Below, one piece after another: positions 45,228 to 59,456 of a DNA stretch of 64,000 bases (positions are counted from its first letter, which is position 1; every line of letters starts with the position of its first letter). Origin of the DNA: Ralstonia pickettii DTP0602 (GTDB taxonomy: Bacteria > Pseudomonadota > Gammaproteobacteria > Burkholderiales > Burkholderiaceae); the NCBI GenBank assembly GCA_000471925.1, contig CP006667.1:1612001-1676000 (forward strand), read 5' to 3'. Both the position numbers and the translations under genes were made by a program. The notes below the pieces were generated by a model. It worked only from the letters and a program-made list of their open reading frames with translations, was not told the DNA's origin and ran no database searches.

Positions 45228-45587
45228 CTAGGCCGGCGGCACCGCGCGGTCGATGGCATCGGCGACGAAGGCATCCACCGGCTTGGGCGCCGACCACAGG
45301 TAGCCCTGGCCAAGGGCGCAGCGCAGCGCCACCAGCGCGCTGCGCTGCGCGTCGGTCTCGACGCCTTCGGCCACGCATTCGAGCCCCAGGTCCAGGGCCA
45401 TGCCGATCATGCTGCGGCAGATGGCGGCGCGCGGCCCGGGGCGGTCGATTTCGGCGGCGAAGGAGCGGTCCAGTTTCAGTTGTGTGAAGGGCAGGTCCGC
45501 CAGCAGCTTGAGCGTCGGGATGCGGGATTTGCCGCATGGTAGCGCCGCACGGCGGAGAGAACCATCAACTGGCGCAGAGTTTGCCAT
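45228..45587 (-). pseudogene. EAL-domain gene remnant (3' half)
   Basis: Minus-strand frame encodes the second half of an EAL domain: [53 protein letters not shown]. The EAL motif and the DDFG region that should precede it are absent; sequence before about residue 24 ([13 protein letters not shown]...) has no EAL homology. The product lacks the catalytic residues for c-di-GMP hydrolysis. It looks like the tail of a larger signalling gene left upstream of ftsK. Confidence 0.75.
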
Positions 45588-45702
45588 GCTGCCCCGTGGA
45601 AAACGCGCAGCAGATGCACGGCGTTACGAATATTTGCGCTTTCCGACCCAATGGCGCCCTGCCATAACCGCTACAATCGCTGCCCGTAGTTTTGAACATG
45701 GC

Positions 45703-48700
45703 ATGTCGATAATGGGTTTTGGCTGGTTCGGATTCTCGACCTTCTGGGTAGTGCCGCTGATCTGGCGGCTGGTCTCGCGTTGGCTTGCCGGCGAGCGCCG
45801 GCTCGCGGGGCCGGGCTCGCTGCGCGTGTGGCTTGGCACGCTGGCGGTGCTGTGCGCCAGCGCCAGCCTGGAAGCGCTCACCGGCGGCGCCGAACCGGAA
45901 TCGAGCGCCGGGGGCTCGGCCGGCCGCGCGCTGGCCGGCCTGATGGGCAACCTGTTCGGCTGGACCGGTGCGCTGCTGCTGATGCTGGGCGTGCTGGCGC
46001 TGGCCGCGCCGATGGTGTTCGGCGAGACCTGGCGCAATCTGTTCTCGCGCAAGCCGCGCCGCGCGCCGGCTGCCGATGCCGCGCCGGACGAAGCGCCGGC
46101 CGTGTTCGCCGCCACGCAACCGCTGCGCGAGACCGAGCGCCGGGATGCCACCGTAGTCGGCAATGCCGGCTGGGCTGCTCCGACCCCGCGCCACCGCAGC
46201 TTCGAAGCCGTGTCCGCACGCCGCCAGCCTGCCTGGCAGCCGCCGCGCCGCACGCGCGAATCCCCGCCGCAGCCGGGCGAGATCTGGCTGCACCATGCCG
46301 ATTCTCCCGGGGCGGTGAAGCCGGCGCGCGCGTCGTCGCCGGTGCCGCCTGTGCAGCCCGCGCCGGCACCGGCACCGCGCCCCGCGCCGCCGGCGGCGCG
46401 CAAGCCTGTCAATACCGCCACGCCGGCACCCGCGGCGGCGTCGCGGCCGGCGCAAGCGCTGCGCGCGACTGTCGTCAGCAGCCCGTTCCGCCAGCCGCGG
46501 CCGCTGGATCGTGCGGCGATCACGACGCTGCCGGAGGCTGCCGGCAAGACGGCTACGGCGACCGTTGCAGCGGCTGCCGTAGCGGCACCGGCTGCGGGGG
46601 CATCCGCCGCGCCTGCGCCGGTTGCGGCCACCGTGGCTGCGACCGAGCCGGTGGCCGCCCCGGCACCGTCTGTTGCTATTAATGAAGCCGAGGCGCCGAT
46701 GGCGGCCGAGGCGAGTGCCATCGCAGCGCCGGCCCAGCCCGGTTCCGCAGTGGGCGCGGTGGACGCTGCGGCTGAAGCGGACGATGCGCCGGACGCCATC
46801 GCCGACGAGGCCGATGAAGTCACGCTGGCCGCCATCCGCCAGGAAGCGCTGGACCTGCTGGCCGAACTGCAGGCCTTGTCGCGCAAGTCGGCAGTGCTCC
46901 AGCCTGTTCCGATGCCGGAAGCTGCGATCGAGCCGGAGACAATCGCCGCCACCACGGAGACGGCTGCCGATATTCCCGCCGATCCGGAACTTGCCGCGCC
47001 CGACAGCATCGCTCCGCAAGCGCAAGCGCAAGCGCAAGCGCAAGCGCAAGCGCAAGCGCAAGCGGAAGCGGAAGCGGAAGCGGAAGCGGAAGCGGAAGCG
47101 GAAGCGGAAGCGGAAGCGGAAGCGGAAGCGGAAGCGGAAGCGGAAGCCGAAGCCGAAGCCGAAGCCGAAGCCGAAGCCGAAGCCGAAGCCGAAGCCGAAG
47201 CCGAAGCCGAAGCCGAAGCCGAAGCCGAAGCGGAAGCCGAAGCCGACGCGGAAGCCGAAGCCGAAGCGGAAGCTGACGTCCAGCTGGAGGCGGTCCAGGC
47301 CGACTCAGCCACCATTGCGGACGACCTCGCCGAAGCCCTCGAGGCCGAGCTTGAAATCACCGGTGCCGAGGCCGTTGCGCAAGCGGTGGCCACCACGGCG
47401 ATGGCGGAGGAGGGGAGTGCGCCGGAGCCCTTCGAGGAGCCGGCAGCGTCCGACAGCGACACCGAAGCGCTGATGGATGCCAACGGACTGGTCGAAGAGG
47501 ACGCCGATATCGTCGCGGAAACCACGGCGCCTGTCGAAGCTGCTGAATCCGTCGAAGCCGTCGAAACAGTGGAAGCTGCCGAAGTAACCTCGGAAGCCGT
47601 GGAAGCCGTGGAAGCCGTGGAAGCCGTGGAAGCCGTGGAAACGGTCGAAACGGTCGAAACGGTCGAAGACACCGAACCCCCGGCCAACCTCCCGCCGCCG
47701 GTTCCGGCAGCCAAGCCCCGTATCGTGCTGCCCGCCGTGGTCGGCCGCACCGTGCCGCTGGCCACCGCCCAGCCCACCGCAGTTCCCGCGTCGGCCCCGG
47801 TTCCACCGGTACCGCCAGCACCGCGCCCGGTCGTCGACTACCGCCTACCGCCCTTCGACCTGCTCGAAAGCGAGGTCGACAGCGCCGAGCAGGTCTCGGA
47901 AGAACGCCTGCGCGAAACCGGCGAACTGATCGCCCAGCGGCTGGCCGAGTTCAAGGTGCCCGTCGCCGTGGTCGGCGCCGGCGCCGGCCCGGTCATCACG
48001 CGCTTCGAGGTCGAACCCGCCATGGGCGTGCGCGGCGCGCAGGTGGTCGGGCTGATGAAGGACCTGGCACGCGCGCTGGGCGTGACCTCGATCCGCGTGG
48101 TCGAGACCATTCCCGGCAAGACCTGCATGGGGTTGGAGCTGCCTAATGCGCGCCGGCAGATGATCCGCCTGTCCGAGATCGTCAACGCCGCCTCGTTCCA
48201 GGCGCACCATTCGCGGCTGGTGCTGGCGATGGGCAAGGACATCACTGGCAACCCGGTCGTCACTGACCTGGCGCGCGCACCGCACCTGCTGGTTGCCGGC
48301 ACCACCGGTTCGGGCAAGTCGGTGGCGGTCAATGCCATGATCCTGTCGATGCTGTACAAGGCCACGCCGGAAGACGTGCGCATGATCATGATCGACCCCA
48401 AGATGCTCGAGCTGTCGGTCTACGAAGGCATTCCCCACCTGCTGGCGCCGGTGGTCACCGACATGAAGCAGGCCGCGCACGCGCTCAACTGGTGCGTCGG
48501 CGAGATGGAGAAGCGCTACAAGCTGATGTCCGCGCTGGGCGTGCGCAACCTCGCCGGCTACAACCAGAAGATCCGCGCCGCCGAGGCCGCGGAGCAGAAG
48601 GTGGCCAACCCGTTCTCGCTGACCCCGGACGCACCCGAGCCGCTGTCGCGTCTGCCGATGATCGTGGTGGTGATCGACGAGCTGGCCGACCTGATGATGG

Positions 48701-49317
48701 TCGCCGGCAAGAAAATCGAAGAACTGATCGCGCGCCTGGCACAGAAGGCGCGCGCCGCCGGCATCCACCTGATCCTGGCCACGCAGCGCCCGTCGGTGGA
48801 CGTGATCACCGGCCTGATCAAGGCCAATATCCCGACGCGGGTGGCGTTCCAGGTTTCGTCCAAGATCGATTCGCGCACCATCCTCGACCAGATGGGCGCG
48901 GAGAGTTTGCTCGGCCAGGGCGACATGCTGTTCCTGCCGCCGGGCACCGGCTACCCGCAGCGCGTGCATGGCGCCTTTGTCGCCGACGACGAAGTGCACC
49001 GCGTGGTCGAGCACTGGAAGCAGTTCGGCGAGCCGGATTACGATGAAGCCATCCTCGCCGGCGACCCGGCCGAGGCCAGCGGCGCCGACCTGTTCGGCGA
49101 CGGCGGCGGCGATGGCGAGGCCGACCCGCTCTACGACGAGGCCGCCAGCTTTGTGCTGACCAGCCGCCGCGCCTCGATCTCGGCGGTGCAGCGCCAGCTG
49201 CGCATCGGCTACAACCGTGCGGCGCGGCTGATCGAACAGATGGAAGTCGCGGGGCTGGTGTCGCCGATGGGCCGCAACGGCGCGCGCGATGTGCTGGCGC
49301 CGGGGCCGGGCGACTGA
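45703..49317 (+). CDS. ftsK: DNA translocase FtsK with expanded (QA)/(EA) linker
   Basis: Septal DNA translocase, 1204 residues from the ATG at 45703 (an ATG at 45712 is an alternative). About three N-terminal TM helices ([46 protein letters not shown]), fewer than the four of classical FtsK. A linker of about 600 residues follows, rich in Ala/Glu/Pro and holding the repeats at 47017-47274 and 47593-47664. The motor begins near residue 712 ([12 protein letters not shown]) with Walker A GTTGSGKS, Walker B-like [12 protein letters not shown] and the C-terminal winged-helix gamma domain ([23 protein letters not shown]). The upstream open frame to 45400 is non-homologous and rejected. Confidence 0.93.
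47017..47274 (+). repeat. Hexanucleotide microsatellite in the ftsK linker
   Basis: 43 consecutive hexamers in frame: 8 x CAAGCG (47017-47064), 13 x GAAGCG (47065-47142), 14 x GAAGCC (47143-47226), then 8 mixed units (with one GACGCG and a GAAGCT end). They encode (QA)8, (EA)30, DA and (EA)4, residues about 439-524. Three pure blocks with one-base differences suggest successive slippage expansions. Confidence 0.97.
47593..47664 (+). repeat. Nine-base repeats in the ftsK linker
   Basis: 5 x GAAGCCGTG (47593-47637) followed by 3 x GAAACGGTC (47638-47664) encode (EAV)5(ETV)3. They are a second in-frame slippage tract, distinct from the hexamers upstream. Confidence 0.93.
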
Positions 49318-49703: not shown

Positions 49704-50015
49704 TCAATGCGCTGATCCGGCATGTCCGAGAACGCGCATCGCGTCGTCCAATTCCAGCCGGACCATGGCGCCCGCACGCATGGCTTCATCGAGACGGGCA
49801 ATCACCACCGGCCCGGCCGTCGACCTGACCGTGGCCAAGTGCACGTCTTCACCGCACTGCGCGCCGACGCGATGGCGCACAACCGTTGTTTCCTCGATCG
49901 TGCCCCCTTCCGCGACCTGCTCTTCCCAGTCCGACGCGCCGCAGTGCGGGCAGAAATAGCGCGCGGGAAATAGCACCGCGTCGCATTGCCGGCAATGAAA
50001 AACGATAAGGTTCAT
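49704..50015 (-). CDS. Zn-ribbon/OB-fold protein (DUF35 type)
   Basis: A 103-residue protein with a rubredoxin-like zinc ribbon, CRQC and CPHC (residues about 8-11 and 22-25), followed by an OB-fold half (TTVVRHRVGAQCGEDVHLATV). DUF35 proteins bind and hold acyl-CoA for a thiolase-like partner, as in steroid side-chain aldolase pairs. Its ATG overlaps the stop of the thiolase-like gene (ATGA at 50012-50015), so a complex is likely. Last gene of the island. Confidence 0.87.
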   Translation of the reverse strand: MNLIVFHCRQCDAVLFPARYFCPHCGASDWEEQVAEGGTIEETTVVRHRVGAQCGEDVHLATVRSTAGPVVIARLDEAMRAGAMVRLELDDAMRVLGHAGSAH

Positions 50016-51181
50016 CTCGATTCCTGGTCCACCCGCTCGAGTACCACGGCGTTCGCGCACATGCCGTAGCGATATTCGACCATGCCATAGCCGCTCACGG
50101 CCGCAAGGCGCGCGCCAGCCACCTGCCGTGCGCCGGCTTGCGCGTGCAACTGGGTAAGCGCTTCGACCAATCCATGCATGCCCCCGGCGGCGCCCGCCTG
50201 GCCGGCGGACAACTGGCCACCAGACGTATTCACCGGCAAATCATGCGAGGCGATGCGTGCAATCAGGCCACGCAGATCCCCGTCTGGCGCAAAGCCGAGA
50301 TCGGCCAATTGCACCAGCGCCATGACCGGGTAATCGTCATACACCGACACCAGATCCATGTCCTGCGGACCGGCGCCGGCCTGCCGCCACAGATCGTCCG
50401 CCAGCGCGACCAGCCCGGTCTGTAGCCCGTCACCGGTCTGATGATCGAGGTTATAGCGGCATTGCAGCGCCCGCACGCGTACGGCAATGCCCGCGCGGCG
50501 CGCCAGATCGGCTCGGGCCACGACCACCGCATTCGCGCCGCAGACCACGGGCACGCAATCGAAACGGCCCAGCGGATCCGCAATCATGGGTGCGGAAAGG
50601 TATTCGTCGAGCGTCAGCGGCGTGCGATATACCGCGCCTGGATTTCGCGCCGCCCAGGCGCGCTGCGCCACGCACAAGGTGCCGTAGTCGTGCCTCGTCA
50701 ATCCGTGACGACGCGCATGCCGTTGGGTCAGCATGGCGAACACGCTATTCGGCCCCCCGTGTTCGAGAGGCCTCAGATACGTCCTAGTCGTCAGGTTGTA
50801 GTGCTCGATCAGTTGCTTGAAGTCGGCCGGCGTAAAGCGATCGCCACTCAGCAGTACGATCACGGATGCGTCGCCGCACTGTATCGCTCGCACGGCGTGC
50901 TGCAACAGATTGATGGCGCTGGCGCCACCATGGCAGTCGTCCATGGACCAGCGGGGACTGAGGCCAAGCCGCCAGGCCATATCGATCGCATGATCGGGAG
51001 CCAGTGTGAATGAGGCCACGCCGAGCCCGTCAACCTCGCTCGAGGTGAATCCTGACTGGACGAGCGCGGCACTGAACGCCTGCGCCAGCAGGTCTGCGGT
51101 GCTCTCCTCCGCTGCTTGGCGGCGGTATGGCACCTCCACGCCGGCGGCCAGCACCACGTTGTCATAATCGCTAATCGTCAT
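50012..51181 (-). CDS. Thiolase-like protein with catalytic His replaced by Gln
   Basis: A 389-residue SCP2-thiolase relative. The Cys nucleophile position is kept (Cys83 in MDDCHGGASAI). In place of the usual NTHGG...GHxG, the C-terminal segment reads NTSGGQLSAGQAGAAGG, with Gln328 at the general-base His. A second Cys is at 375 (YGMCANAVVL). These changes argue against normal thiolysis; retro-aldol, decarboxylation or acyl transfer are possible, as known for thiolase-like partners of DUF35 proteins. The start at 51181 is preferred over 51292. Coupled to the DUF35 gene and 80 nt after the CoA ligase. Confidence 0.86.
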   Translation of the reverse strand: MTISDYDNVVLAAGVEVPYRRQAAEESTADLLAQAFSAALVQSGFTSSEVDGLGVASFTLAPDHAIDMAWRLGLSPRWSMDDCHGGASAINLLQHAVRAIQCGDASVIVLLSGDRFTPADFKQLIEHYNLTTRTYLRPLEHGGPNSVFAMLTQRHARRHGLTRHDYGTLCVAQRAWAARNPGAVYRTPLTLDEYLSAPMIADPLGRFDCVPVVCGANAVVVARADLARRAGIAVRVRALQCRYNLDHQTGDGLQTGLVALADDLWRQAGAGPQDMDLVSVYDDYPVMALVQLADLGFAPDGDLRGLIARIASHDLPVNTSGGQLSAGQAGAAGGMHGLVEALTQLHAQAGARQVAGARLAAVSGYGMVEYRYGMCANAVVLERVDQESR

Positions 51182-51260
51182 TCGATGAGTTTGTTGCGTC
51201 GCTGACTGGTCCGGGCGTCCATAGCGCTCATAAGATTCGAGCGCACACCACCCACTGAAT

Positions 51261-52943
51261 TCATGAGCGCTTGAGCCGGTATCCTGAAGCATCCAGGTCC
51301 CAGGTCTGTTCGGTTACGCCGCGCTCACGCAATTTGTACTTCTGAATCTTGCCGTTTTCGGTTTTTGGCAGGTCAGGCGTGAATTCCAGATACCTCGGCA
51401 CCGCAAAATAGGGTAACCGCGGTTCACAGAACTGGATCAACGCCATCGGATCGATCTGCGCATCACGGCGCAGTACGACCATCGCCATCACCTCATCTTC
51501 CGCCAGCGCGGAGCGCACCGCGAATACCGCGGCAGTCTCGACCGCGGGATGGCTGAGAATGACCTGCTCCACCTCGTACGACGAAATGTTCTCGCCGCGG
51601 CGACGAATGGCGTCTTTTTGCCGGTCCACGAATCGGAAGTAGCCATCCGCTTCGCGCACCACGCGGTCGCCCGTGTGAAACCAAAGGTTGCGCCACGCGT
51701 CTACCGTCTTTTCCGGCATGCCGAAATATCCGGTGGCGAACGCGAACGGTTGCTCGGCGCGCAGAATCAGTTCGCCCGGCTCGCCGTGCGGTACCTGCTG
51801 GTCATTGTCATTCACCACGCGCGCCTCGAACCCGGCGACAACCTGGCCCATATAGCCCGCGCGTTGCTGCTGAATGCCGCCGCCAATCGCGAAATTGGTT
51901 TCGGTAGATCCATAGCCATCGAGTAGACGAATGCCGGAGCGTGCCGTGAAGTCTTCCTGAAATTTCCCTGGCACGCCGGGCGCCAGCGCAATGCGTACGG
52001 TATGGGCGCGCTCGGCCGCCGCAATCGGGCGCCCCAGCAGAATCGGAACCATGGCGCCGAGCACGAAAGTCACCGTTGCCCGCGTTTCTACCAGGCTATC
52101 GAAGAAACGGCTGGCGGAAAACCGACGGTCCGCCACCAGCGTGGCGTCATGGATCAATGCCTGATAGAAGCTGTTCAGCGCATTGGTATGGAACAGCGGC
52201 AGGCAGGTGTAAAGGACATCCCCTGCCGTCACACCGAGATGATGCCCCGTATAGTGGGCCCACCAATAGAACTGGGCGTGCGGGCAAATCACGCCCTTCG
52301 ACAGCCCGGAAGTGCCCGAGGTGTACAGGATGGCCAGTGGGTCGCCATCCGTCAACGCAGCAGGAGGGACCGCGGTGCCGAGCGGCGGCATTGGTATGGG
52401 TTCCCACTGCGACGGCAGCGGAGCGTCGGCCGACACCTCGCCAATCAACCAGATCCGTTCGAGCGCGAGACCAGGGGCGTCCAGCGCCGTGACTGCGCCG
52501 ACCAGATGGGATTCCGCTACCAGCAGGCGCGCACCGGAATTCCGCAGAATGTGTTCGAGTTGCAGACCCCGTGAGGCGGTGTTGACAGGCACCACGACCG
52601 CGCCCAGCCAGGCACAGCCGAGCACGACCTCCATGAATTCGACGCGGTTGGAACATAACAAAGCCACGCGGTCGCCGCGCGTGATTCCCTGGTCGGCAAG
52701 ACTGCCCGCCCGCCGCGCTGCAATCGTACAGGCGTCGTTGCCCGTCCACTGCGTCGTGCGATCCGAGAAGAGGGGCGCGTCGCCGTTACGCGCCGCCCGT
52801 GCGGCCAGCAGGGCAGGCAACGTGTACCCGGTCGCACCATCAGGTATGGAATCGAGTGAAACATCTGTAGATTGAATCTGCATTCTCATCTGCGCGAACT
52901 CTATCGATTTTTGATAACTTTGATTGGAAACCTGGCGCAGCAT
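51261..52943 (-). CDS. AMP-dependent acyl-CoA ligase
   Basis: A 560-residue adenylate-forming acyl-CoA synthetase. AMP-binding motif YTSGTSGLSKG, ATP/AMP loops GYGSTET and HTGDRV, and the C-terminal catalytic Lys in LPKTENGKIQKYKLR are intact. It would activate a carboxylic acid to its CoA thioester. The first ATG at 52943 overlaps the porin stop (TGATG); later ATGs at 52889 or 52883 are possible starts. Substrate is unreadable; context suggests an acid released by the M20 hydrolase. Its codon and GC use (59-60% by eye in places) is slightly below that of neighbouring core genes. Confidence 0.9.
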   Translation of the reverse strand: MLRQVSNQSYQKSIEFAQMRMQIQSTDVSLDSIPDGATGYTLPALLAARAARNGDAPLFSDRTTQWTGNDACTIAARRAGSLADQGITRGDRVALLCSNRVEFMEVVLGCAWLGAVVVPVNTASRGLQLEHILRNSGARLLVAESHLVGAVTALDAPGLALERIWLIGEVSADAPLPSQWEPIPMPPLGTAVPPAALTDGDPLAILYTSGTSGLSKGVICPHAQFYWWAHYTGHHLGVTAGDVLYTCLPLFHTNALNSFYQALIHDATLVADRRFSASRFFDSLVETRATVTFVLGAMVPILLGRPIAAAERAHTVRIALAPGVPGKFQEDFTARSGIRLLDGYGSTETNFAIGGGIQQQRAGYMGQVVAGFEARVVNDNDQQVPHGEPGELILRAEQPFAFATGYFGMPEKTVDAWRNLWFHTGDRVVREADGYFRFVDRQKDAIRRRGENISSYEVEQVILSHPAVETAAVFAVRSALAEDEVMAMVVLRRDAQIDPMALIQFCEPRLPYFAVPRYLEFTPDLPKTENGKIQKYKLRERGVTEQTWDLDASGYRLKRS

Positions 52944-54061
52944 CAGAAGCGCATGCGGATCCCCGTGGCAACGATGCTGACATCGTCACCGGGCTGACTC
53001 AAGGCAACCCCGGCGAGCGAGCCGATTGCGTTCTTCTGGTTCAGCACATAGCCAAGGCGGGCATACAAGGCCGTGGTCTTCGACATGTTGTAGTCGTAGC
53101 CCAGCCCAATCGCGAGCGAGTCGCCACTGGCCTTGCCTGCCACGTTGCGATAGACCGCGGAGAACTTGATGACACCGGGCCCCGTTGGAACGCTGAGACC
53201 GACCATATGACTGGTCGCAATGAAGTATCCGGCGCGGTCAGGGTTCGTCATGTTGAACTCGTAAGTGGCGTTGGTACCGCCAGGGAAGGAATACATCCCG
53301 CCGGCACCCAACCACCTGTTCCTCACCGAGGACACGGTCGCGGTGGGATCCGTATTGATGATGTTATAAAACACCCCGAGGTAGAGCGGGCCACTTGCGT
53401 ACTCAAGTTGAGCCCCGTGGAAGCTGGATTCGGGATAGCCTGGCGTGGTGACGCCGCGCGGCGCATGCAGATATTCGAACTGGAAGCCGCCGAGGATCGG
53501 GGTGGTGTAGGAAATGGCGTCGCTGATGCGGGAATCGCCGATGGTGGCACCCCTTCCCAGATCGGAACTCAAGCTGACCAGCGATGCAAGGGGGGAGAAA
53601 GCTCCCACGCCCAGGAACGGATCAATCGCGATCGACAGCTGGGTTGGATACTGGCGTCCCAGCTTGATTCTTCCCCACTGCCTGGAAATCAGTGAAATGT
53701 TGGCTTCGCGATTGAAAAGACTGGATTCACCCTCTGCGGTGGTAGCGCCTGCGCTCCCATTTTTCAACTTGAGCCCGCTCTCCAGGTTGAAAGCCACGGA
53801 CAGTCCGTTACCCAGATGTTCAACACCAAGCAGCCCGAAGCGCGAGGTCGCGCCTGCGCCGCTCTCTGACTGCAGCAGGCGATTGCTCCCCGCACGCGAA
53901 TACTGGATGCCGGCATCGGCGACACCATAGAGGCTGAGTCCGCCTGATCCCGGCATCGGATCGGGTTTCAGGATTTGGAAAGATTCTGCCGCGGATACGG
54001 CAGTTGCTAAGCAAACTGGAAATGCAGCCAGATATCTGGGTATCTGCTTGATCAAAGACAC
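52943..54061 (-). CDS. Outer-membrane porin of the accessory island
   Basis: A 372-residue Gram-negative porin of the Burkholderiales type. Signal peptide (LAAFPVCLATAVSAAE), first strand SGLSLYGVADAGIQYSRAG, eyelet-loop region and final strand ISIVATGIRMRF ending in Phe. It starts a minus-strand run with the CoA ligase and thiolase-like genes, with stop/start overlap, so it is probably a substrate-specific channel for the pathway acid or amide. Confidence 0.9.
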   Translation of the reverse strand: MSLIKQIPRYLAAFPVCLATAVSAAESFQILKPDPMPGSGGLSLYGVADAGIQYSRAGSNRLLQSESGAGATSRFGLLGVEHLGNGLSVAFNLESGLKLKNGSAGATTAEGESSLFNREANISLISRQWGRIKLGRQYPTQLSIAIDPFLGVGAFSPLASLVSLSSDLGRGATIGDSRISDAISYTTPILGGFQFEYLHAPRGVTTPGYPESSFHGAQLEYASGPLYLGVFYNIINTDPTATVSSVRNRWLGAGGMYSFPGGTNATYEFNMTNPDRAGYFIATSHMVGLSVPTGPGVIKFSAVYRNVAGKASGDSLAIGLGYDYNMSKTTALYARLGYVLNQKNAIGSLAGVALSQPGDDVSIVATGIRMRF

Positions 54062-54233
54062 GTCTTCCTCCGGTTTTTATTATCTGAATCTTGAGCAGGC
54101 CGCGACCACATCGCGCCCGGCGTGCAGCTGTTAATCTACGAATGCCTGAGTTAGAAGTCCCACGCGGCCGGTGGCGGTGGAATGCCTCGGAGAGTCGGGA
54201 ATTTGTGAAGGTGCGAGTTCGCTTCGACGACTG

Positions 54234-54257
54234 TCCGCAGCAATGCATTGCTGCGGA
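54234..54257. promoter_or_regulatory. 24-nt perfect palindrome upstream of the porin operon
   Basis: TCCGCAGCAATG is followed at once by its exact complement CATTGCTGCGGA, with no spacer. This is a strong candidate for a dimeric-regulator operator. It lies about 170-190 nt upstream of the porin start (54061, minus strand). Confidence 0.65.
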
Positions 54258-54278
54258 TCACAGCCGGCAACAGAGTCG

Positions 54279-54307
54279 CATTCGTCCCGGAAACCCGGGA
54301 GCGAATG
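54279..54307 (-). terminator. Hairpin downstream of the Bug gene
   Basis: CATTCG/CGAATG and TCCCGG/CCGGGA form two stacked 6-bp stems with a one-base bulge and a 4-nt loop. It lies 92-120 nt after the Bug stop; the U-tract is weak. Confidence 0.5.
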
Positions 54308-54398
54308 AATCTTGGCCCGCAACTGCGGAATAGGGCCTCGCTTCCGCTATTCGGGTAACCTGGATCGCATCAATATTCGAGACAGCTGATCGGTGGCC

Positions 54399-55358
54399 TC
54401 AGTTGCTGACAATAGACTTGTACCGCTGCGTCTCCATCTTGATCAGCTCGAGGGCGTCTTCGTCGTCACGCGCAGGAACGCCGATCGCATCGTCAAGGTG
54501 TCGACGGAACTGCGGGCTGTGTAGCGCGCTTTGCAGCGTCGACTTCAGCTTCCCGACCACGGGAGCGGGGAGGTTCTTCGGGCCGGCGAGAACAAACCAG
54601 CCCGTCACATCGTAGCCCTTCAGCAAGGGGTGCTCGGCTACCGTAGGAACGTTCGGGAATTTGGCGGACCTCTCCTTTGTGGTCACTGCGATGGGTACGA
54701 CCTTACCCGCATCAATCAGAGCCTTCGCCGATGCGATTCCCATCACGCCAACCTCGAGGTTGTTTCCCGCGAGATCAGTACCCAACGGCGCGACGCCACG
54801 ATATGGAACGTGGGTCATACGGGTATTGGTTCTTTGCATCAGGGACTCCATCGCATAGTGCAGCATCGAGCCGATCCCCGACGTGCCATAACTCAGCGCG
54901 CCAGGCGCGCTCCTCATGCGCTTGATGAGGTCGTCGGTCGTCCGGATACCACTTTTCGGGGAGGCCAGGATCATCGCACCCTGATGCTCCACTACGCCGA
55001 TATAGGTGAAGTCCTTTGACCCGTCATACGCCTGCTGCGGATTGAACAACCTGGTCGCGACCAGCTCGTTGGTGGAACCAAGCAGCAGCGTGTAGCCGTC
55101 CGGCGCGGCGCGTGCCACCTTTTGCGCGGCAATCGCTCCGGTGGCGCCACCGATATTCTCGACAACAACAGTTGCCCCAAGCGAGGTGGAAAGGGCTTGC
55201 GCCAGCGCTCTGGCGGCAACATCGGAAGAGCCACCCGGGGGATACCCCACGACGAGCGAGATGGGCTTGGCCGGATATGCACTTTGTGCTTGCACAATGC
55301 CACAAAATGAACAAATTCCCAGCATTGCGATGGTGTTAAGAATCGTCTTGAGCTTCAT
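54399..55358 (-). CDS. Bug-family periplasmic binding protein of the accessory island
   Basis: A 319-residue Bug (TctC-like) substrate binder with a Sec signal (IAMLGICSFCGIVQAQ), unlike the RR-type signal of the other Bug gene at 22578. Mature signatures YPAKPISLVVGYPPGGSSD, VVENIGGATG and APDGYTLLLG are present. It is expressed from the same strand as the M20 hydrolase upstream and the porin operon downstream. The ligand is probably the carboxylate substrate of the island. Confidence 0.9.
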   Translation of the reverse strand: MKLKTILNTIAMLGICSFCGIVQAQSAYPAKPISLVVGYPPGGSSDVAARALAQALSTSLGATVVVENIGGATGAIAAQKVARAAPDGYTLLLGSTNELVATRLFNPQQAYDGSKDFTYIGVVEHQGAMILASPKSGIRTTDDLIKRMRSAPGALSYGTSGIGSMLHYAMESLMQRTNTRMTHVPYRGVAPLGTDLAGNNLEVGVMGIASAKALIDAGKVVPIAVTTKERSAKFPNVPTVAEHPLLKGYDVTGWFVLAGPKNLPAPVVGKLKSTLQSALHSPQFRRHLDDAIGVPARDDEDALELIKMETQRYKSIVSN

Positions 55359-55409
55359 CGGCTTCTCGTGAAATGATCAGAAAGTCTCGGCTTGCGTTCA
55401 CTGGCTGGA

Positions 55410-56834
55410 CTAGCCGCGTGCGGGGGGAGGCATGACCTCGGGCGGGATCGGGCACTCATAGGGACGCTGGCCTCTCTTGCGTTCTAGTTCCTGCCTGGCT
55501 TCGCGCAAGGTGTCAGGCGTTCCGGCAAGATCGATGGCCGTTGCGGCCAACGTTTTCGCTGCCAGCAGCATCCCCTTGTGAGCAAGGGATAGCTTGCCCT
55601 GGGCCACCATTTGCCATGAATGAAAGCCGGTTCCCCACGCATAGCAGGCGGTCAGGCATTGTGTTGTCGGAACGACCCAGCTGACATCGCCGACATCCGT
55701 CGACCCGGTGACGGGGCGTTTGATGTCGGGGTGATAGGGAAGGACTTCGGTAATGATGGGTCTGGGATCGCGCAAGGCAGCGGCAAAATGACGCGAGCTG
55801 TTGGCCAGGTCATCCGCATTCACCGTGTTCTGTATTTTGGCTGCAAAGTCGGTTTCGCTTGCATTGACTTCCAGTCCGCCAAGCGCCCGCATGTTGCGAT
55901 CCAGGATCGCATCGAACGTGTCATTGTGGAGGATGTTCGAGCAGGCCTTATCGAAGATGATTTCCAGGCGCGTGCCCGTCATCAATGCGGCACCTGCGGC
56001 AATATCCTTGACGCGTTTGAAGAGATCGATCGCTTCTTCGCTGCGCGGGGCACGGATCGTGTAAAGAACCTCGGCAAGGACTGGGATGACATTAGTGGAT
56101 ACTCCCCCCGAGTTGATGTAGGCAAAATGCACGCGCGCCTCGTCAGGCATGTGCTCGCGGAGATAGTTGACTCCGATGTTCATCAGTTCCGCCGCGTCAA
56201 GCGCGCTTCGCCCCAGGTGCGGAGCCAATGCCGCATGTGACGACTTTCCGTGGAAACGGAAATAGGCCTGCACATTGGCGAGGGTGGCATTCATGAACAC
56301 GGAGTTGGCGACGGACGGGTGCCAGCTCAGGGCCACGTCCAGGTCATCGAACAGGCCGTCGCGGGCCATGAAGGTCTTGCCGGCGGCTGCCTCCTCGGCC
56401 GGGCACCCGTAGAAGCGGACCGTGGCGTCGATGTTGTTTGCTGCAAAGTAGTCCCTCGCGACCACCGCAGCCAGGTGGGCCGCAGACCCAAGGAGATGGT
56501 GACCGCAGCCATGACCGTTACTCGTGGCCGCGCCCGCGGCGGGCATGCAGGTGAGCGCGCCGCTTTCCTGACTCAGCCCGGCAAGTGCATCGTACTCCCC
56601 GAGAAAGCCGATCACGGGCCCTCCCGAGCCGGCTTCGGCGACGAAGGCCGTTGGCATGTGTGCCACGCCTCGATTGACCTTGAAGCCCGCCTCCTCGATC
56701 AGCGAGGCGTGCAACTCGGCTGAGCGAAACTCCGCATAGCGCATTTCGGCCAGCGACCATATTTCGTTGGCCAGGGAGATGTATCGGTCCTGCTTCGCTT
56801 CGACGAGGTCCACGACACTTGCTATATGCTTCAT
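55410..56834 (-). CDS. M20-family amidohydrolase (AbgB-like)
   Basis: A 474-residue metal-dependent amidohydrolase close to p-aminobenzoyl-glutamate hydrolase subunit B. Metal/catalytic motifs are GHGCGHHLLG, CPAEEAAAGK, and the C-terminal STDVGDVSWVVPTTQ. The lid-domain block SSHAALAPHLGRSALDA follows the Glu pair. It would cleave an N-acyl amino acid or aryl amide. Divergent from a LysR gene, probably its regulator. Confidence 0.91.
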   Translation of the reverse strand: MKHIASVVDLVEAKQDRYISLANEIWSLAEMRYAEFRSAELHASLIEEAGFKVNRGVAHMPTAFVAEAGSGGPVIGFLGEYDALAGLSQESGALTCMPAAGAATSNGHGCGHHLLGSAAHLAAVVARDYFAANNIDATVRFYGCPAEEAAAGKTFMARDGLFDDLDVALSWHPSVANSVFMNATLANVQAYFRFHGKSSHAALAPHLGRSALDAAELMNIGVNYLREHMPDEARVHFAYINSGGVSTNVIPVLAEVLYTIRAPRSEEAIDLFKRVKDIAAGAALMTGTRLEIIFDKACSNILHNDTFDAILDRNMRALGGLEVNASETDFAAKIQNTVNADDLANSSRHFAAALRDPRPIITEVLPYHPDIKRPVTGSTDVGDVSWVVPTTQCLTACYAWGTGFHSWQMVAQGKLSLAHKGMLLAAKTLAATAIDLAGTPDTLREARQELERKRGQRPYECPIPPEVMPPPARG

Positions 56835-56881
56835 ATACGTTCCAGGTGATCTACGCGGCGCGTGCCACGGCTCGAAGGGGA

Positions 56882-56900
56882 TGCATCCTTGGGCGATGCA
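56882..56900. promoter_or_regulatory. Dyad in the M20/LysR divergent promoter
   Basis: TGCATC and GATGCA are 7 nt apart and lie between the divergent M20 and LysR starts. Possible LysR site; only 6-bp arms. Confidence 0.35.
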
Positions 56901-57008
56901 ATATCACCGGGCAAAGCATATTTGGTCGGGCGGGGGTTCGGTAGGCAGCTATTTGTGTCGCCGTTCACCATTGGTTGCCCTGGCTCTCAACCCAATTTTT
57001 TGCTCGAA

Positions 57009-57977
57009 ATGAAGCTTCATCAACTCCGCGCACTTGTGGCGATCGCCGACAGCGGAAGCATCCGGAATGCGGCCAGGGCCACCTCCCACTCACCGGCCGC
57101 CATCACCAAAGCGGTCCGTGAACTGGAAGACGAAGTCGGGGTGACCTTGATCATTCGCGAGACGACGGGCATCACCTTGACCCAGGCCGGGCACGTCCTG
57201 CTGGAACATGCGCGTCTCACTGTGGGTGTGCTGGCGCGCGCCCGGCAGGAAATGGACGTCTTTGCCGGAAAGCGGAAAGGGACCCTGGCGGTTGGTATCC
57301 CGGCCTGGCTGGGCATGACCTTGCTTGGCGAAATCGCCGGCCGCTTCCAGCTGCAGATGCCGGACACCCGGCTCGAGTTCTTCGAGAGCCTGCTTACGGT
57401 AACGGTGCCAAAGCTTCGCGATGGCACGCTTGACCTCTCGATAGGGCGAATGTACTTGTCCCAGTCGGAGGAGTTCGCCCAACTGCCGCTCTTCTCGACC
57501 GGATACGCCGTGGTGGCGCGAGCTGGCCATCCACTGGCCGAGTGCCGGACGCTACAGGACCTTAAAGGAGCCACCTGGATTCTGAATCGTGATTTCGCGG
57601 GGGAATCCGATGGCGTGGTCGAGAGCGCATTCAGCGACTATTGCGCCCGTTACTCTCCCCGCATCCATATCTCGCACTCAAGCGTGATAGCCACGAACCT
57701 GATCGCCAGCACGGACTTTCTCAGCCTCATGCCCTGGCCATTGGCGGAATTATTGTTGGCAAAAGACGGGCTTTGCGTGTTGCCGATCAGGGATGCGCTG
57801 CCAGATGCCAGGATCAGCATCACGCATCGGCGTGCAGTGCCATTGGGCGCGGCGGCCAAGTGTTTTATCGACGCAACCATGGCTGTGATACGGGAGTCAG
57901 CCAACTCGACAGATCCCGCCAAACGACGCTTCTTTCGCGCGATTGAGTGTCTGCTCGATGATGGCAAGTCGAAATGA
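57009..57977 (+). CDS. LysR-family regulator of the accessory island
   Basis: A 322-residue LysR regulator. Helix-turn-helix region MKLHQLRALVAIADSGSIRNAARATSHSP leads to an effector domain with the GIPAWLGMTLLGEIA beginning. The start at 57009 (ATGAAGCTTCATCAA) matches the family; the longer frame from 56862 lacks homology. Transcribed divergently from the M20 gene, it is the natural sensor of the island substrate. Confidence 0.9.
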   Translation: MKLHQLRALVAIADSGSIRNAARATSHSPAAITKAVRELEDEVGVTLIIRETTGITLTQAGHVLLEHARLTVGVLARARQEMDVFAGKRKGTLAVGIPAWLGMTLLGEIAGRFQLQMPDTRLEFFESLLTVTVPKLRDGTLDLSIGRMYLSQSEEFAQLPLFSTGYAVVARAGHPLAECRTLQDLKGATWILNRDFAGESDGVVESAFSDYCARYSPRIHISHSSVIATNLIASTDFLSLMPWPLAELLLAKDGLCVLPIRDALPDARISITHRRAVPLGAAAKCFIDATMAVIRESANSTDPAKRRFFRAIECLLDDGKSK

Positions 57978-58061: not shown

Positions 58062-59456
58062 TCAGTAAATGTTCTCCACGCGGTCTTGTTGCCCGCGGAT
58101 TTCCTCGGGACTGAGCACGATATAGCCCAGGGATTTCAGCAGCTGCACGGCCTCCAGTTCCGCATCCAGGTACACCGGCCGCTCGGGGCGGCGCGCGCTC
58201 GGCGCGGTCGGCGGCAAGGCGGTGCGGGCGTGTGGAGCGGGTGCTGCCTTGCCATCCGGCCACCTGGCAGTCAGGATGCGGCAATGCTCCAGGTTGGGCT
58301 TCCAGGATACGTCGACGGCGGCATTGAACCTCGCGGTGCAAAGCCGCAGCCGCTTCAGCGCCTTCAGCCAGTTGACGAAGGTGTCGCGCTGTGAGGACTG
58401 GTAACCCTTCAGGAGGGTATTGAGATGGTCCTGCGCAGTGCCCCCGTCGGTGGCGTGATCCTCTTCGAGTAACGAAATCTCAAGCGCCACGCGCTGGCGT
58501 CCGTCCTGATCGTAGATCGCACATTCGCCGTCGAGCACGCCTTCGTGCAGCAATTCGCACAGCAGTGCCCAGGTTCTTGGATTCTTGTCGAGCCGGCCTT
58601 CGAGGGTTGGGTCCAGCTGGCCGAGAATGTCAGGAATGGGGCGATTCTTGTCCGACTGGACGGCCAATGCGAAAGCCAGCGCGTTGTCCGATGGCCGCTC
58701 GCCGCGTGCCAGCATCTGCAGGGACGCTTCCGTAAGTTCGCGGATTTCCGCGGCGGTATCCACCGCATGCATCCATGCATAGTCATCCAGACTTGCGCAC
58801 AACTTGCGCGCGGGCCGGGCCAGCTGGCCAGCCAGCCTCTGGACAAAACTTGTGCAGACAGCGCAGCGACATTCCAGGCGGCCAGCATGCAGGAACCCGG
58901 CGTACAAGCGCTCCTGATGCCCGCAGTGCGCGCATTCGACTGAAAAACCGCCTTGCCGCGCCGGCCGCTGCGTCGCGAGCAGCCCATCGACCTGGAAGTG
59001 CGCCGGTCCGTCGCAGCATGGACAGATCCATTGCAGCTTGTGCGCGCCGTCGCGAGGTGCCACCGTCCGGTCAAACTGGCGCTCGATGGCGCTGCTCGGA
59101 ATGCCCTGCGACCGCCCTAGTACATCTGCCGAGTAGCGCCAATAGCAATAGGAGTGGGCGGCCGCGGCCGCCTCCGGGGCCAGGCGCTGCAACGCTGGCA
59201 GAAGTTGGGTATTGCGCCGGATCTCGTTCTGCATCGAATCGACCAGCGCCACGCCGCCGGGCATCGCTGCCTCGAGTGCGGCGCGGCTCTGTTCGACGAA
59301 ATCCGGCACATGGGCCTGGCGGATGAAGTCCTCGTTCTCCAGCCAGAACAAATGCCCGGGGAGCGCTTCCAGTGACTCGATGCCATCCCGGACTTCCGAC
59401 ATGCCCGGGCAGGCGAGAAACGTGAAGGGTCTGCTAAACAGGAAAGCATTTGTCAT
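58062..59456 (-). CDS. Orphan cysteine-rich protein of unknown function
   Basis: A 464-residue protein I do not recognise. The centre holds three cysteine knuckles: CPCC (residues 145-148), CAHC (175-178) and CRCAVC (196-201), about 18-27 residues apart, which suggests one or two zinc-binding modules. Outside these it is helical and charged, with no signal peptide or TM segment; a Pro/Ala-rich segment near 410-430 precedes a short C-terminal helix. It has no clear operon partner. A 15-nt palindrome sits just upstream of the start. A DNA- or RNA-associated role is possible but unproved. Confidence 0.8.
   Translation of the reverse strand: MTNAFLFSRPFTFLACPGMSEVRDGIESLEALPGHLFWLENEDFIRQAHVPDFVEQSRAALEAAMPGGVALVDSMQNEIRRNTQLLPALQRLAPEAAAAAHSYCYWRYSADVLGRSQGIPSSAIERQFDRTVAPRDGAHKLQWICPCCDGPAHFQVDGLLATQRPARQGGFSVECAHCGHQERLYAGFLHAGRLECRCAVCTSFVQRLAGQLARPARKLCASLDDYAWMHAVDTAAEIRELTEASLQMLARGERPSDNALAFALAVQSDKNRPIPDILGQLDPTLEGRLDKNPRTWALLCELLHEGVLDGECAIYDQDGRQRVALEISLLEEDHATDGGTAQDHLNTLLKGYQSSQRDTFVNWLKALKRLRLCTARFNAAVDVSWKPNLEHCRILTARWPDGKAAPAPHARTALPPTAPSARRPERPVYLDAELEAVQLLKSLGYIVLSPEEIRGQQDRVENIY

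What the first reader, a model, noticed from the sequence alone, without database searches (positions are those of the whole stretch)
49704..57977. Uncharacterised uptake-cleave-activate-split pathway island
Six minus-strand genes with a divergent LysR: M20 amidohydrolase, Bug binder, porin, acyl-CoA ligase, thiolase-like protein and Zn-ribbon/OB protein, several overlapping by ATGA or TGATG. Together they form a full logic: import an amide, hydrolyse it, activate the acid with CoA, and cut or rearrange it with a noncanonical thiolase-like pair. I cannot match the set to a named pathway.
Basis: partly seen in the sequence, partly recalled or inferred. Interest (0 to 1): 0.7.

Follow-up and report, generated by a model that had tools for sequence, protein, structure and literature searches.

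The report
Probable spent-auxin salvage gene island
A soil bacterium carries an inserted gene island that most likely takes up oxidised, inactive remains of the plant hormone auxin and cuts off their side chain to feed on them, using an enzyme that looks like a thiolase but should work as an aldolase.

Summary
The seven genes are real and correctly named; two of five within-operon junctions overlap. I place its core, ligase–thiolase-like–Zn-ribbon (DUF35), in the bacterial auxin (iad) pathway. Homologues in Ruegeria and Sulfitobacter are the iad genes F–G–H, where H is a DUF35–SDR fusion. In ten Paraburkholderia loci the window-type thiolase/DUF35 pair sits beside an iad Rieske oxygenase, an IadF-type ligase and (nine of ten) IadJ. 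The thiolase-like protein has the Sal/Ltp2-aldolase fold but not the thiolase catalytic residues; a YDDY motif marks its clade, while 15 outgroup rows read YDAF/YDCF. Isatin hydrolase is in all 4 Cupriavidus genomes that have the gene (12 of 60 overall); this genome's copy lies ~1 Mb away beside a 2-oxoacid oxidoreductase and a salicylyl/anthraniloyl-CoA-type monooxygenase. Best reading: dioxindole-3-acetate (dioxIAA), an inactive plant auxin product, is joined to CoA and cut by retro-aldol cleavage to isatin plus acetyl-CoA; the M20 enzyme may free dioxIAA from amino-acid conjugates. The island has no auxin oxygenase, is G+C-poor and interrupts a conserved locus. Substrate and activity are untested. 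New variant of a known kind.

The parts
49704..50015 (-). stand-alone Zn-ribbon/OB (DUF35, ChsH2-like) subunit; matches the N-terminal half of the IadH fusion
   Evidence: zf-ChsH2 36.5 bits; ChsH2 of 6ok1 E 8e-5; aligns to residues 43-117 of the R. pomeroyi fusion, E 3e-10, both CxxC pairs kept
50012..51181 (-). thiolase-like retro-aldolase candidate (IadG-like; YDDY clade)
50330..50341 (-). YDDY motif (residues 281-284 of the 389-aa protein), candidate Tyr281/Asp283 dyad
   Evidence: 72/72 window-type and 17/17 iad-type rows (five loci counted twice), 120/120 listed database homologues; outgroup YDAF/YDCF 15/15
50192..50230 (-). NTSGGQLSAGQAG loop: Gln in place of the thiolase histidine; two Gln spaced as in CtSal
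51261..52943 (-). ATP-dependent acyl-CoA ligase (PRK06155; IadF-like)
   Evidence: NCBIfam 840.1 bits > cut-off 722; 31% to R. pomeroyi IadF; start codon uncertain
52943..54061 (-). outer-membrane porin (Porin_4)
   Evidence: 133.6 bits; 58-68% homologues near the M20 at 6 of 9 places in the genus of G313
54399..55358 (-). Bug/TctC periplasmic binding protein
   Evidence: 189.5 bits
55410..56834 (-). M20 amidohydrolase, proposed (di)oxIAA-amino-acid hydrolase
   Evidence: TIGR01891 258 bits > 153.75; HGCGHH, AEEA, WHPS and GTGFHSWQ stretches present (motifs recalled)
56835..57008 (.). divergent M20/LysR promoter region, 174 bp
   Evidence: a crude scan found no LysR-box-like palindrome
57009..57977 (+). 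LysR regulator (conserved part; the listed ORF starts at 56862)
   Evidence: HTH_1 + LysR_substrate; profile matches begin at about residue 50
58062..59456 (-). unknown 464-aa protein that travels with the island
   Evidence: no Pfam/NCBIfam match; present with the island in L166, no match in the ten empty sites

Best explanation
The island is an oxygenase-free branch of the iad auxin pathway that feeds on auxin already oxidised by the plant. Porin and Bug bring in dioxindole-3-acetic acid (dioxIAA/DOAA), probably as its Asp/Glu conjugate; the M20 enzyme releases the acid; the ligase makes dioxindole-3-acetyl-CoA. That thioester carries a tertiary beta-hydroxyl, so the thiolase-like protein with its DUF35 partner should cleave it by retro-aldol reaction, giving isatin and acetyl-CoA (Tyr281 as base, Asp283 where CtSal has Cys304). 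Isatin is hydrolysed by the isatin hydrolase encoded ~1 Mb away, then oxidatively decarboxylated by the 2-oxoacid oxidoreductase encoded beside it to anthraniloyl-CoA, and attacked by the flavin monooxygenase/reductase of the same locus. Shown here: gene identities, kinship to IadF/G/H, motif, gene substitution and co-occurrence. Inferred: every reaction, the substrate, the direction of transport and the LysR effector. Recalled chemistry: DOAA-CoA is a beta-hydroxy, not a beta-keto, thioester. My confidence is about 0.7 for the ligase-aldolase part and 0.45 for M20 acting on dioxIAA conjugates.
Against: No enzyme was assayed. 62 of 76 loci show no isatin-hydrolase-like cyclase within 10 kb (some contigs are short); the commonest Burkholderia form has SDR + dienelactone-hydrolase-like genes instead (DLH 22/76). 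Some markers also ring in controls: Bug 3/18, IadJ-like SDR 3/18, the TPP enzyme 1/18, the second SDR 1/18. Eight of 12 Cupriavidus genomes with isatin hydrolase lack Thl, so that enzyme has other uses. The order-level co-occurrence is mostly physical linkage in iad operons. The window ligase is only 31% identical to IadF. M20 lies within 10 kb of Thl in only 4/76 loci (two pairs of close kin), 6 of 9 M20 places have no Thl nearby, and five M20 homologues of 53-57% elsewhere in the order have none. The nearest solved relatives of the M20 are HmrA and a PM20D2-like Xaa-Arg dipeptidase, not plant ILR1. Fold scores for CtSal tie with true thiolases (BbsB 44.4, 6et9 44.3). The iad preprint proposes a ketothiolase and a reductive removal giving C8H7NO2, not isatin.
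Confidence: 0.6

Rival explanations
1. Same ligase-retro-aldolase module, but the M20 enzyme, Bug and porin serve another N-acyl amino acid; the two modules are neighbours by chance of island assembly or act on a different beta-hydroxy acid.
For: M20-LysR with two M20 paralogues is its own unit at 9 of 9 places (LysR 55-62%; a 58-68% porin at 6), with Thl within 10 kb at only 3; nearest solved M20 relatives are HmrA and a Xaa-Arg dipeptidase; Bug is not conserved with the rest.
Against: The modules are adjacent in Cupriavidus, in L017/L018 and at L178; both would suit acids bound to amino acids, which exist in plants.
Confidence: 0.35
2. The thiolase-like protein is a true thiolytic thiolase of an aryl beta-oxidation, like benzoylsuccinyl-CoA thiolase BbsAB, after oxidation by an enzyme encoded elsewhere.
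For: Thiolase fold; BbsB ties CtSal in Z (44.4); the iad preprint calls IadG a ketothiolase.
Against: BbsB model 60.8 bits against a cut-off of 750; no conserved nucleophile Cys, Gln for the active-site His, YDDY for HDCF; no hydratase or 3-hydroxyacyl-CoA dehydrogenase among the island's named genes.
Confidence: 0.12
3. Side-chain aldolase for a steroid, bile-acid or diterpenoid substrate (Sal, Ltp2 or DitF type).
For: CtSal and TcLtp2/ChsH2 are the nearest characterised aldolases; some database relatives are named DitF.
Against: 34 of 76 loci (counted from the rows) have an isatin-hydrolase-like, IOR, IadD-like or 3-hydroxyanthranilate-dioxygenase gene within 10 kb against 0/18 controls; the catalytic Cys or His of Sal/Ltp2 is Asp here. 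Steroid genes were not searched for.
Confidence: 0.06
4. No pathway: genes of separate operons that happen to lie together.
For: Bug is not conserved with the other genes; Bug-porin gap of 337 bp.
Against: Same gene order in C. necator A5-1 and Cupriavidus sp. UYMMa02A; island absent as a block from ten empty sites; G+C 61% against 68-69% in the flanks.
Confidence: 0.05

Closest known systems
iad auxin-degradation pathway (Variovorax iadC-K2; R. pomeroyi homologue)
   Same: homologues of IadF, IadG and the DUF35 half of IadH; IadI-type isatin hydrolase in the genome
   Different: no Rieske oxygenase IadCDE in the island (best genome match 31%), DUF35 not fused to an SDR, LysR for MarR, M20 + Bug + porin added
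CtSal-CtShy and TcLtp2-ChsH2 thiolase-like steroid aldolases
   Same: thiolase fold with DUF35 partner, YD-motif tyrosine, no thiolase nucleophile, Gln pair as in CtSal
   Different: third motif residue is Asp (YDDY) where CtSal has Cys and TcLtp2 His; indole-type context near part of the loci
benzoylsuccinyl-CoA thiolase BbsAB
   Same: thiolase-like subunit of the same fold, partnered by a Zn-ribbon protein
   Different: far below the BbsB family cut-off (60.8 of 750 bits)
plant GH3-DAO-ILR1 auxin inactivation
   Same: ILR1 also hydrolyses oxIAA-amino acids; it is placed in the same amidohydrolase family (recalled)
   Different: here a bacterial salvage of its end product rather than inactivation of auxin

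Membership tests
iad auxin pathway | Rieske oxygenase IadCDE in the locus | tested here: not met
   none among the island's genes; best IadD match in the genome 31%
iad auxin pathway | IadF-type acyl-CoA ligase next to the thiolase-like gene | tested here: inconclusive
   homologous, 31%, but the window ligase passes PRK06155 (840/722) and R. pomeroyi IadF does not (356/722)
iad auxin pathway | thiolase-like IadG; clade with YDDY motif | tested here: met
iad auxin pathway | IadH: DUF35 fused to SDR (as in R. pomeroyi) | tested here: not met
   DUF35 half only
iad auxin pathway | IadI isatin-hydrolase-type cyclase | tested here: met
   not in the island; at G000:C1:648.4-649.2 kb, 455 bits to 5nmp
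iad auxin pathway | IadJ dehydrogenase | not tested
   the genome was not searched for it; none in the island
iad auxin pathway | IadR MarR regulator | tested here: not met
   LysR instead
Sal/Ltp2 thiolase-like aldolases | thiolase fold with DUF35 partner gene | tested here: met
Sal/Ltp2 thiolase-like aldolases | catalytic Tyr of the YDxx motif | tested here: met
   Tyr281 invariant
Sal/Ltp2 thiolase-like aldolases | Sal Cys304 (or the second Tyr of Ltp2) | tested here: not met
   Asp283; Gln at the Ltp2 Tyr344 site
Sal/Ltp2 thiolase-like aldolases | retro-aldol activity on a beta-hydroxyacyl-CoA | not testable with these tools
   needs enzyme assay
canonical or SCP2 thiolase | nucleophilic Cys, active-site His, HDCF-type motif | tested here: not met
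M20D amidohydrolase (TIGR01891) | score above curated cut-off and metal-binding stretches | tested here: met
   258/153.75; stretches (motifs recalled)
IAA-amino-acid hydrolase (ILR1 type) | hydrolysis of IAA/oxIAA-amino acids | not testable with these tools
   no entry so named among the ten PDB hits at E<=1e-3, which does not exclude it

The most novel reading that the evidence does not exclude
Bacteria have an oxygenase-free catabolic module for the plant's inactive auxin product: dioxIAA and its Asp/Glu conjugates are imported, deconjugated and cleaved to isatin + acetyl-CoA by a new catalytic class of thiolase-fold aldolase (Tyr-Asp dyad, YDDY). The same class, including IadG, performs the unresolved side-chain removal of the iad pathway.
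Probability: 0.4. Interest if true: 0.78.

Novelty: new variant of a known kind. Interest (0 to 1): 0.62.

Why it matters
The step that removes the acetyl side chain in bacterial auxin degradation was assigned from annotation in the one paper I found on it (ketothiolase, reductive removal; PMC12633357, passages). A YDDY thiolase-fold aldolase with a DUF35 partner gives a concrete, testable mechanism for it. It also suggests a guild in Cupriavidus, Paraburkholderia, Burkholderia relatives and Actinomycetota that eats spent auxin, a catabolite that exceeds oxIAA 50-200-fold in rice and Brachypodium, without touching active auxin. That would be a different ecological role from the auxin-destroying Variovorax.

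Tried and rejected
Considered and dropped: (a) ibuprofen-type IpfF-IpfD-IpfE deacylation (recalled; search listed no paper on those genes, though it did list the Alcaligenes paper noted below; Patulibacter medicamentivorans carries the trio, L057); (b) carnitine-type substrate, suggested only by a CaiC-family score below cut-off; (c) WHOP/iif indole island (PMC12538310, passages), a different gene set; (d) IAA oxygenase elsewhere in the genome: IadD best 31% and no match to a flavin-monooxygenase-like protein from a Caballeronia locus, but I had no true IacA sequence, so an iac route is not excluded; (e) LysR-box search in the 174-bp intergenic region, nothing; (f) promoter and terminator scans at chance level; (g) survey of IAA degraders PMC11630574: none of six terms found in its text.

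Limits of counts: the genome-contig scan used VYDDYPVM as one of six patterns, so YDDY in those loci is partly by construction. Sets not chosen by that pattern also show it: seven iad-type loci (five, two) and the 120 proteins listed of 6,518 found (checked). In one search five iad loci were counted twice (L083-086, L098 = L132-136), eight duplicate or own loci were left out and matches under about 250 residues (L080, L081) fell out; the tree used 100 of the 105 rows, the five duplicates dropped. The 76 loci include several from one genome or species and some short contigs. Controls are Cupriavidus stretches only, 18 of 20 asked (two did not exist), while cases span phyla. In one search the hypergeometric tests count the own genome, and the order test supposes that searches drew the same 200 genomes (the handles agree). 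Only the L018 and own-genome cyclases were compared with solved isatin hydrolases; the others are 43-97% identical to L018's. Empty-site test: 13 stretches fetched of 52 genomes with the cupin; two carry the island, ten show cupin followed by the right-flank genes (gap up to 1.5 kb; in L162 the FAD gene lies further off), one (L158) lacks the right flank.
Full report
What is there. The finding's seven genes exist where stated. Families are zf-ChsH2, Thiolase_C_1, AMP-binding, Porin_4, TctC/Bug, M20 and LysR; the ligase passes the NCBIfam equivalog PRK06155 and the M20 passes TIGR01891. Starts need correction: the thiolase-like protein most likely begins at 51181, the Zn-ribbon gene at 50015 and LysR near 57009. 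Only porin/ligase (TGATG) and thiolase/Zn-ribbon (ATGA) overlap.

It is an island. G+C is 61.0% for 49704-57977 against 68-69% in the flanks, and the 12 lowest of 223 sliding 8.3-kb windows all overlap it. The same block stands at the same site in the C. necator A5-1 genome (G041, L166). In ten of eleven island-less Cupriavidus stretches the cupin gene is followed, with a gap of at most 1.5 kb, by the peroxidase-related and CMD genes that lie beyond the island here. The unit that comes and goes includes an unknown 464-aa gene at 58062-59456.

What the core is. A scan of genome contigs with the thiolase-like protein gave 76 loci. A ligase of at least 45% identity lies on the same strand within 6 kb in 56 of 76, any ligase on the locus in 69, and a DUF35 match within 2.5 kb in 65. 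So ligase-thiolase-DUF35 is a real module. It occurs in Burkholderiales, Bradyrhizobium, Pseudomonas viridiflava and Actinomycetota.

Link to auxin. Plasmid homologues at about 40% identity sit in Ruegeria pomeroyi and Sulfitobacter operons: reductase (Ruegeria), Rieske alpha and beta, AMP-ligase, thiolase, SDR, cyclase, SDR. In R. pomeroyi the 412-aa 'SDR' after the thiolase is zf-ChsH2 + OB_ChsH2_C + SDR. This is the iad order described for Variovorax: IadCDE oxygenase, IadF acyl-CoA synthetase, IadG 'acetyl-CoA acetyltransferase', IadH dehydrogenase, IadI annotated kynurenine formamidase, IadJ dehydrogenase (PMC12633357, passages read). PMC9613470 (passages) counts an R. pomeroyi MarR among IadR. 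I therefore read the window trio as counterparts of IadF, IadG and the DUF35 half of IadH. The window DUF35 aligns with residues 43-117 of the R. pomeroyi fusion (E 3e-10).

A natural swap experiment. Ten Paraburkholderia loci (L014, L016, L019, L020, L023, L027, L028, L035, L036, L055) carry a Rieske protein 53-54% identical to that of R. pomeroyi, an IadF-type ligase (in L014, the one compared, 54-59% to Ruegeria/Sulfitobacter IadF against 33% to the window ligase) and, in nine of them, IadJ (51-54%). Beside these, on the other strand, stands a thiolase of the window type (78-80% to the window) with its stand-alone DUF35. They form one clade close to the window clade. There the product of the iad ligase should be handed to a window-type enzyme, so the substrate class is probably the same.

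Downstream genes fit. Within 10 kb of the thiolase, 14 of 76 loci have an isatin-hydrolase-like cyclase (controls 0 of 18), 9 have IOR subunits (0 of 18), 7 have 3-hydroxyanthranilate dioxygenase + ACMSD + RidA (0 of 18); Bug, SDR and TPP markers ring in controls too (3, 3 and 1, and 1 of 18). The cyclase of L018 scores 467 bits to isatin hydrolase 5nmp. The window's own genome has, about 1 Mb away, a cyclase at 455 bits to 5nmp together with porin, MFS, IOR alpha/beta and a PRK08255-type salicylyl-CoA hydroxylase/oxidoreductase (1368 bits, cut-off 1078), which I read as acting on anthraniloyl-CoA. In the genus, isatin hydrolase is in 12 of 60 genomes and in all 4 with the thiolase; in the order in 7 of 200, in all 5 with a YDDY thiolase and in 0 of 11 with only the outgroup type (hypergeometric 0.001 and 8e-9, the second inflated by linkage in iad operons). 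DOAA, isatin and isatinic acid were reported as IAA products in Pseudomonas LY1 (PMC8383072, passages).

Why spent auxin. No oxygenase stands in the island; the best IadD match in the genome is 31%, and a Caballeronia flavin-monooxygenase-like query found nothing (not a true IacA). Plants make the substrate: dioxIAA accumulates 50-200 times above oxIAA in rice and Brachypodium, and ILR1 hydrolyses oxIAA-Asp/Glu (PMC8608799, passages). PMC10390838 cites dioxIAA-Asp and dioxIAA-Glu from rice roots (passage). That gives the M20 enzyme a plausible job.

The M20 module. In the genus of G313, 8 of 144 genomes have an M20 of at least 80% identity, at 9 places. Five more distant M20 homologues (53-57%) in the order have no thiolase nearby. 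So M20-LysR is a second unit that has met the first more than once. L178 carries the SDR+DLH form. I hold M20 action on dioxIAA conjugates at about 0.45.

Against and open. Most loci lack isatin hydrolase nearby, and the commonest Burkholderia form has SDR + DLH genes with no explained role. The preprint's data (C8H7NO2, dioxindole by formula, accumulating without IadI) differ from isatin as first product; the SDR half of IadH could reduce isatin to dioxindole, and the window lacks that half, so here isatin is predicted. This is inference.

Literature. Searches (open-licence PMC papers only; several lists were cut to their best 12-20 rows) listed no paper that I recognised as describing an oxygenase-free DOAA pathway or an aldolase role for IadG; the term 'aldol' does not occur in PMC12633357. 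Subscription papers were not searchable. All papers were seen as passages, not whole.

Verdict. A real, inserted catabolic island; the core is a new variant of the iad auxin pathway. Mechanism likely, substrate unproven.

Noticed in passing
window 45400-49317: FtsK carries a long Glu-Ala repeat (EAEAEA...) in its linker.
   Followed up: no
window 58062-59456: 464-aa protein without Pfam or NCBIfam match that is present or absent together with the island.
   Followed up: partly
L053, L056, L060 (Alcaligenes): Carry the ligase-thiolase-DUF35 trio; an A. faecalis nitrification paper (PMC11160463, passage) reports an uncharacterised 7-gene cluster with ligase, thiolase and DUF35_N up-regulated at low C/N, perhaps the same cluster.
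   Followed up: no
L104 and L021, L022, L030, L031, L079: Burkholderia/Caballeronia form adds 3-hydroxyanthranilate dioxygenase, ACMSD and RidA (and, identified in L021, a 2-hydroxymuconic semialdehyde dehydrogenase): a different fate for the aromatic amine.
   Followed up: partly
L057: Patulibacter medicamentivorans I11 (recalled as an ibuprofen degrader) has ligase, YDDY thiolase, DUF35 and an isatin-hydrolase-like cyclase.
   Followed up: no
L044, L047, L061, L105 (Actinomycetota): Cyclase next to a TPP enzyme: possible isatinate decarboxylase instead of IOR.
   Followed up: partly
L008/L138 (C. necator A5-1, second copy): Ligase-MFS-thiolase-DUF35-isatin hydrolase with IOR alpha/beta beside it: the proposed DOAA-to-anthraniloyl-CoA route in one place with no oxygenase marker found.
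   Followed up: partly
L167 (Cupriavidus sp. UYMMa02A): Island genes match in split pieces, as if frameshifted, in a draft contig.
   Followed up: no
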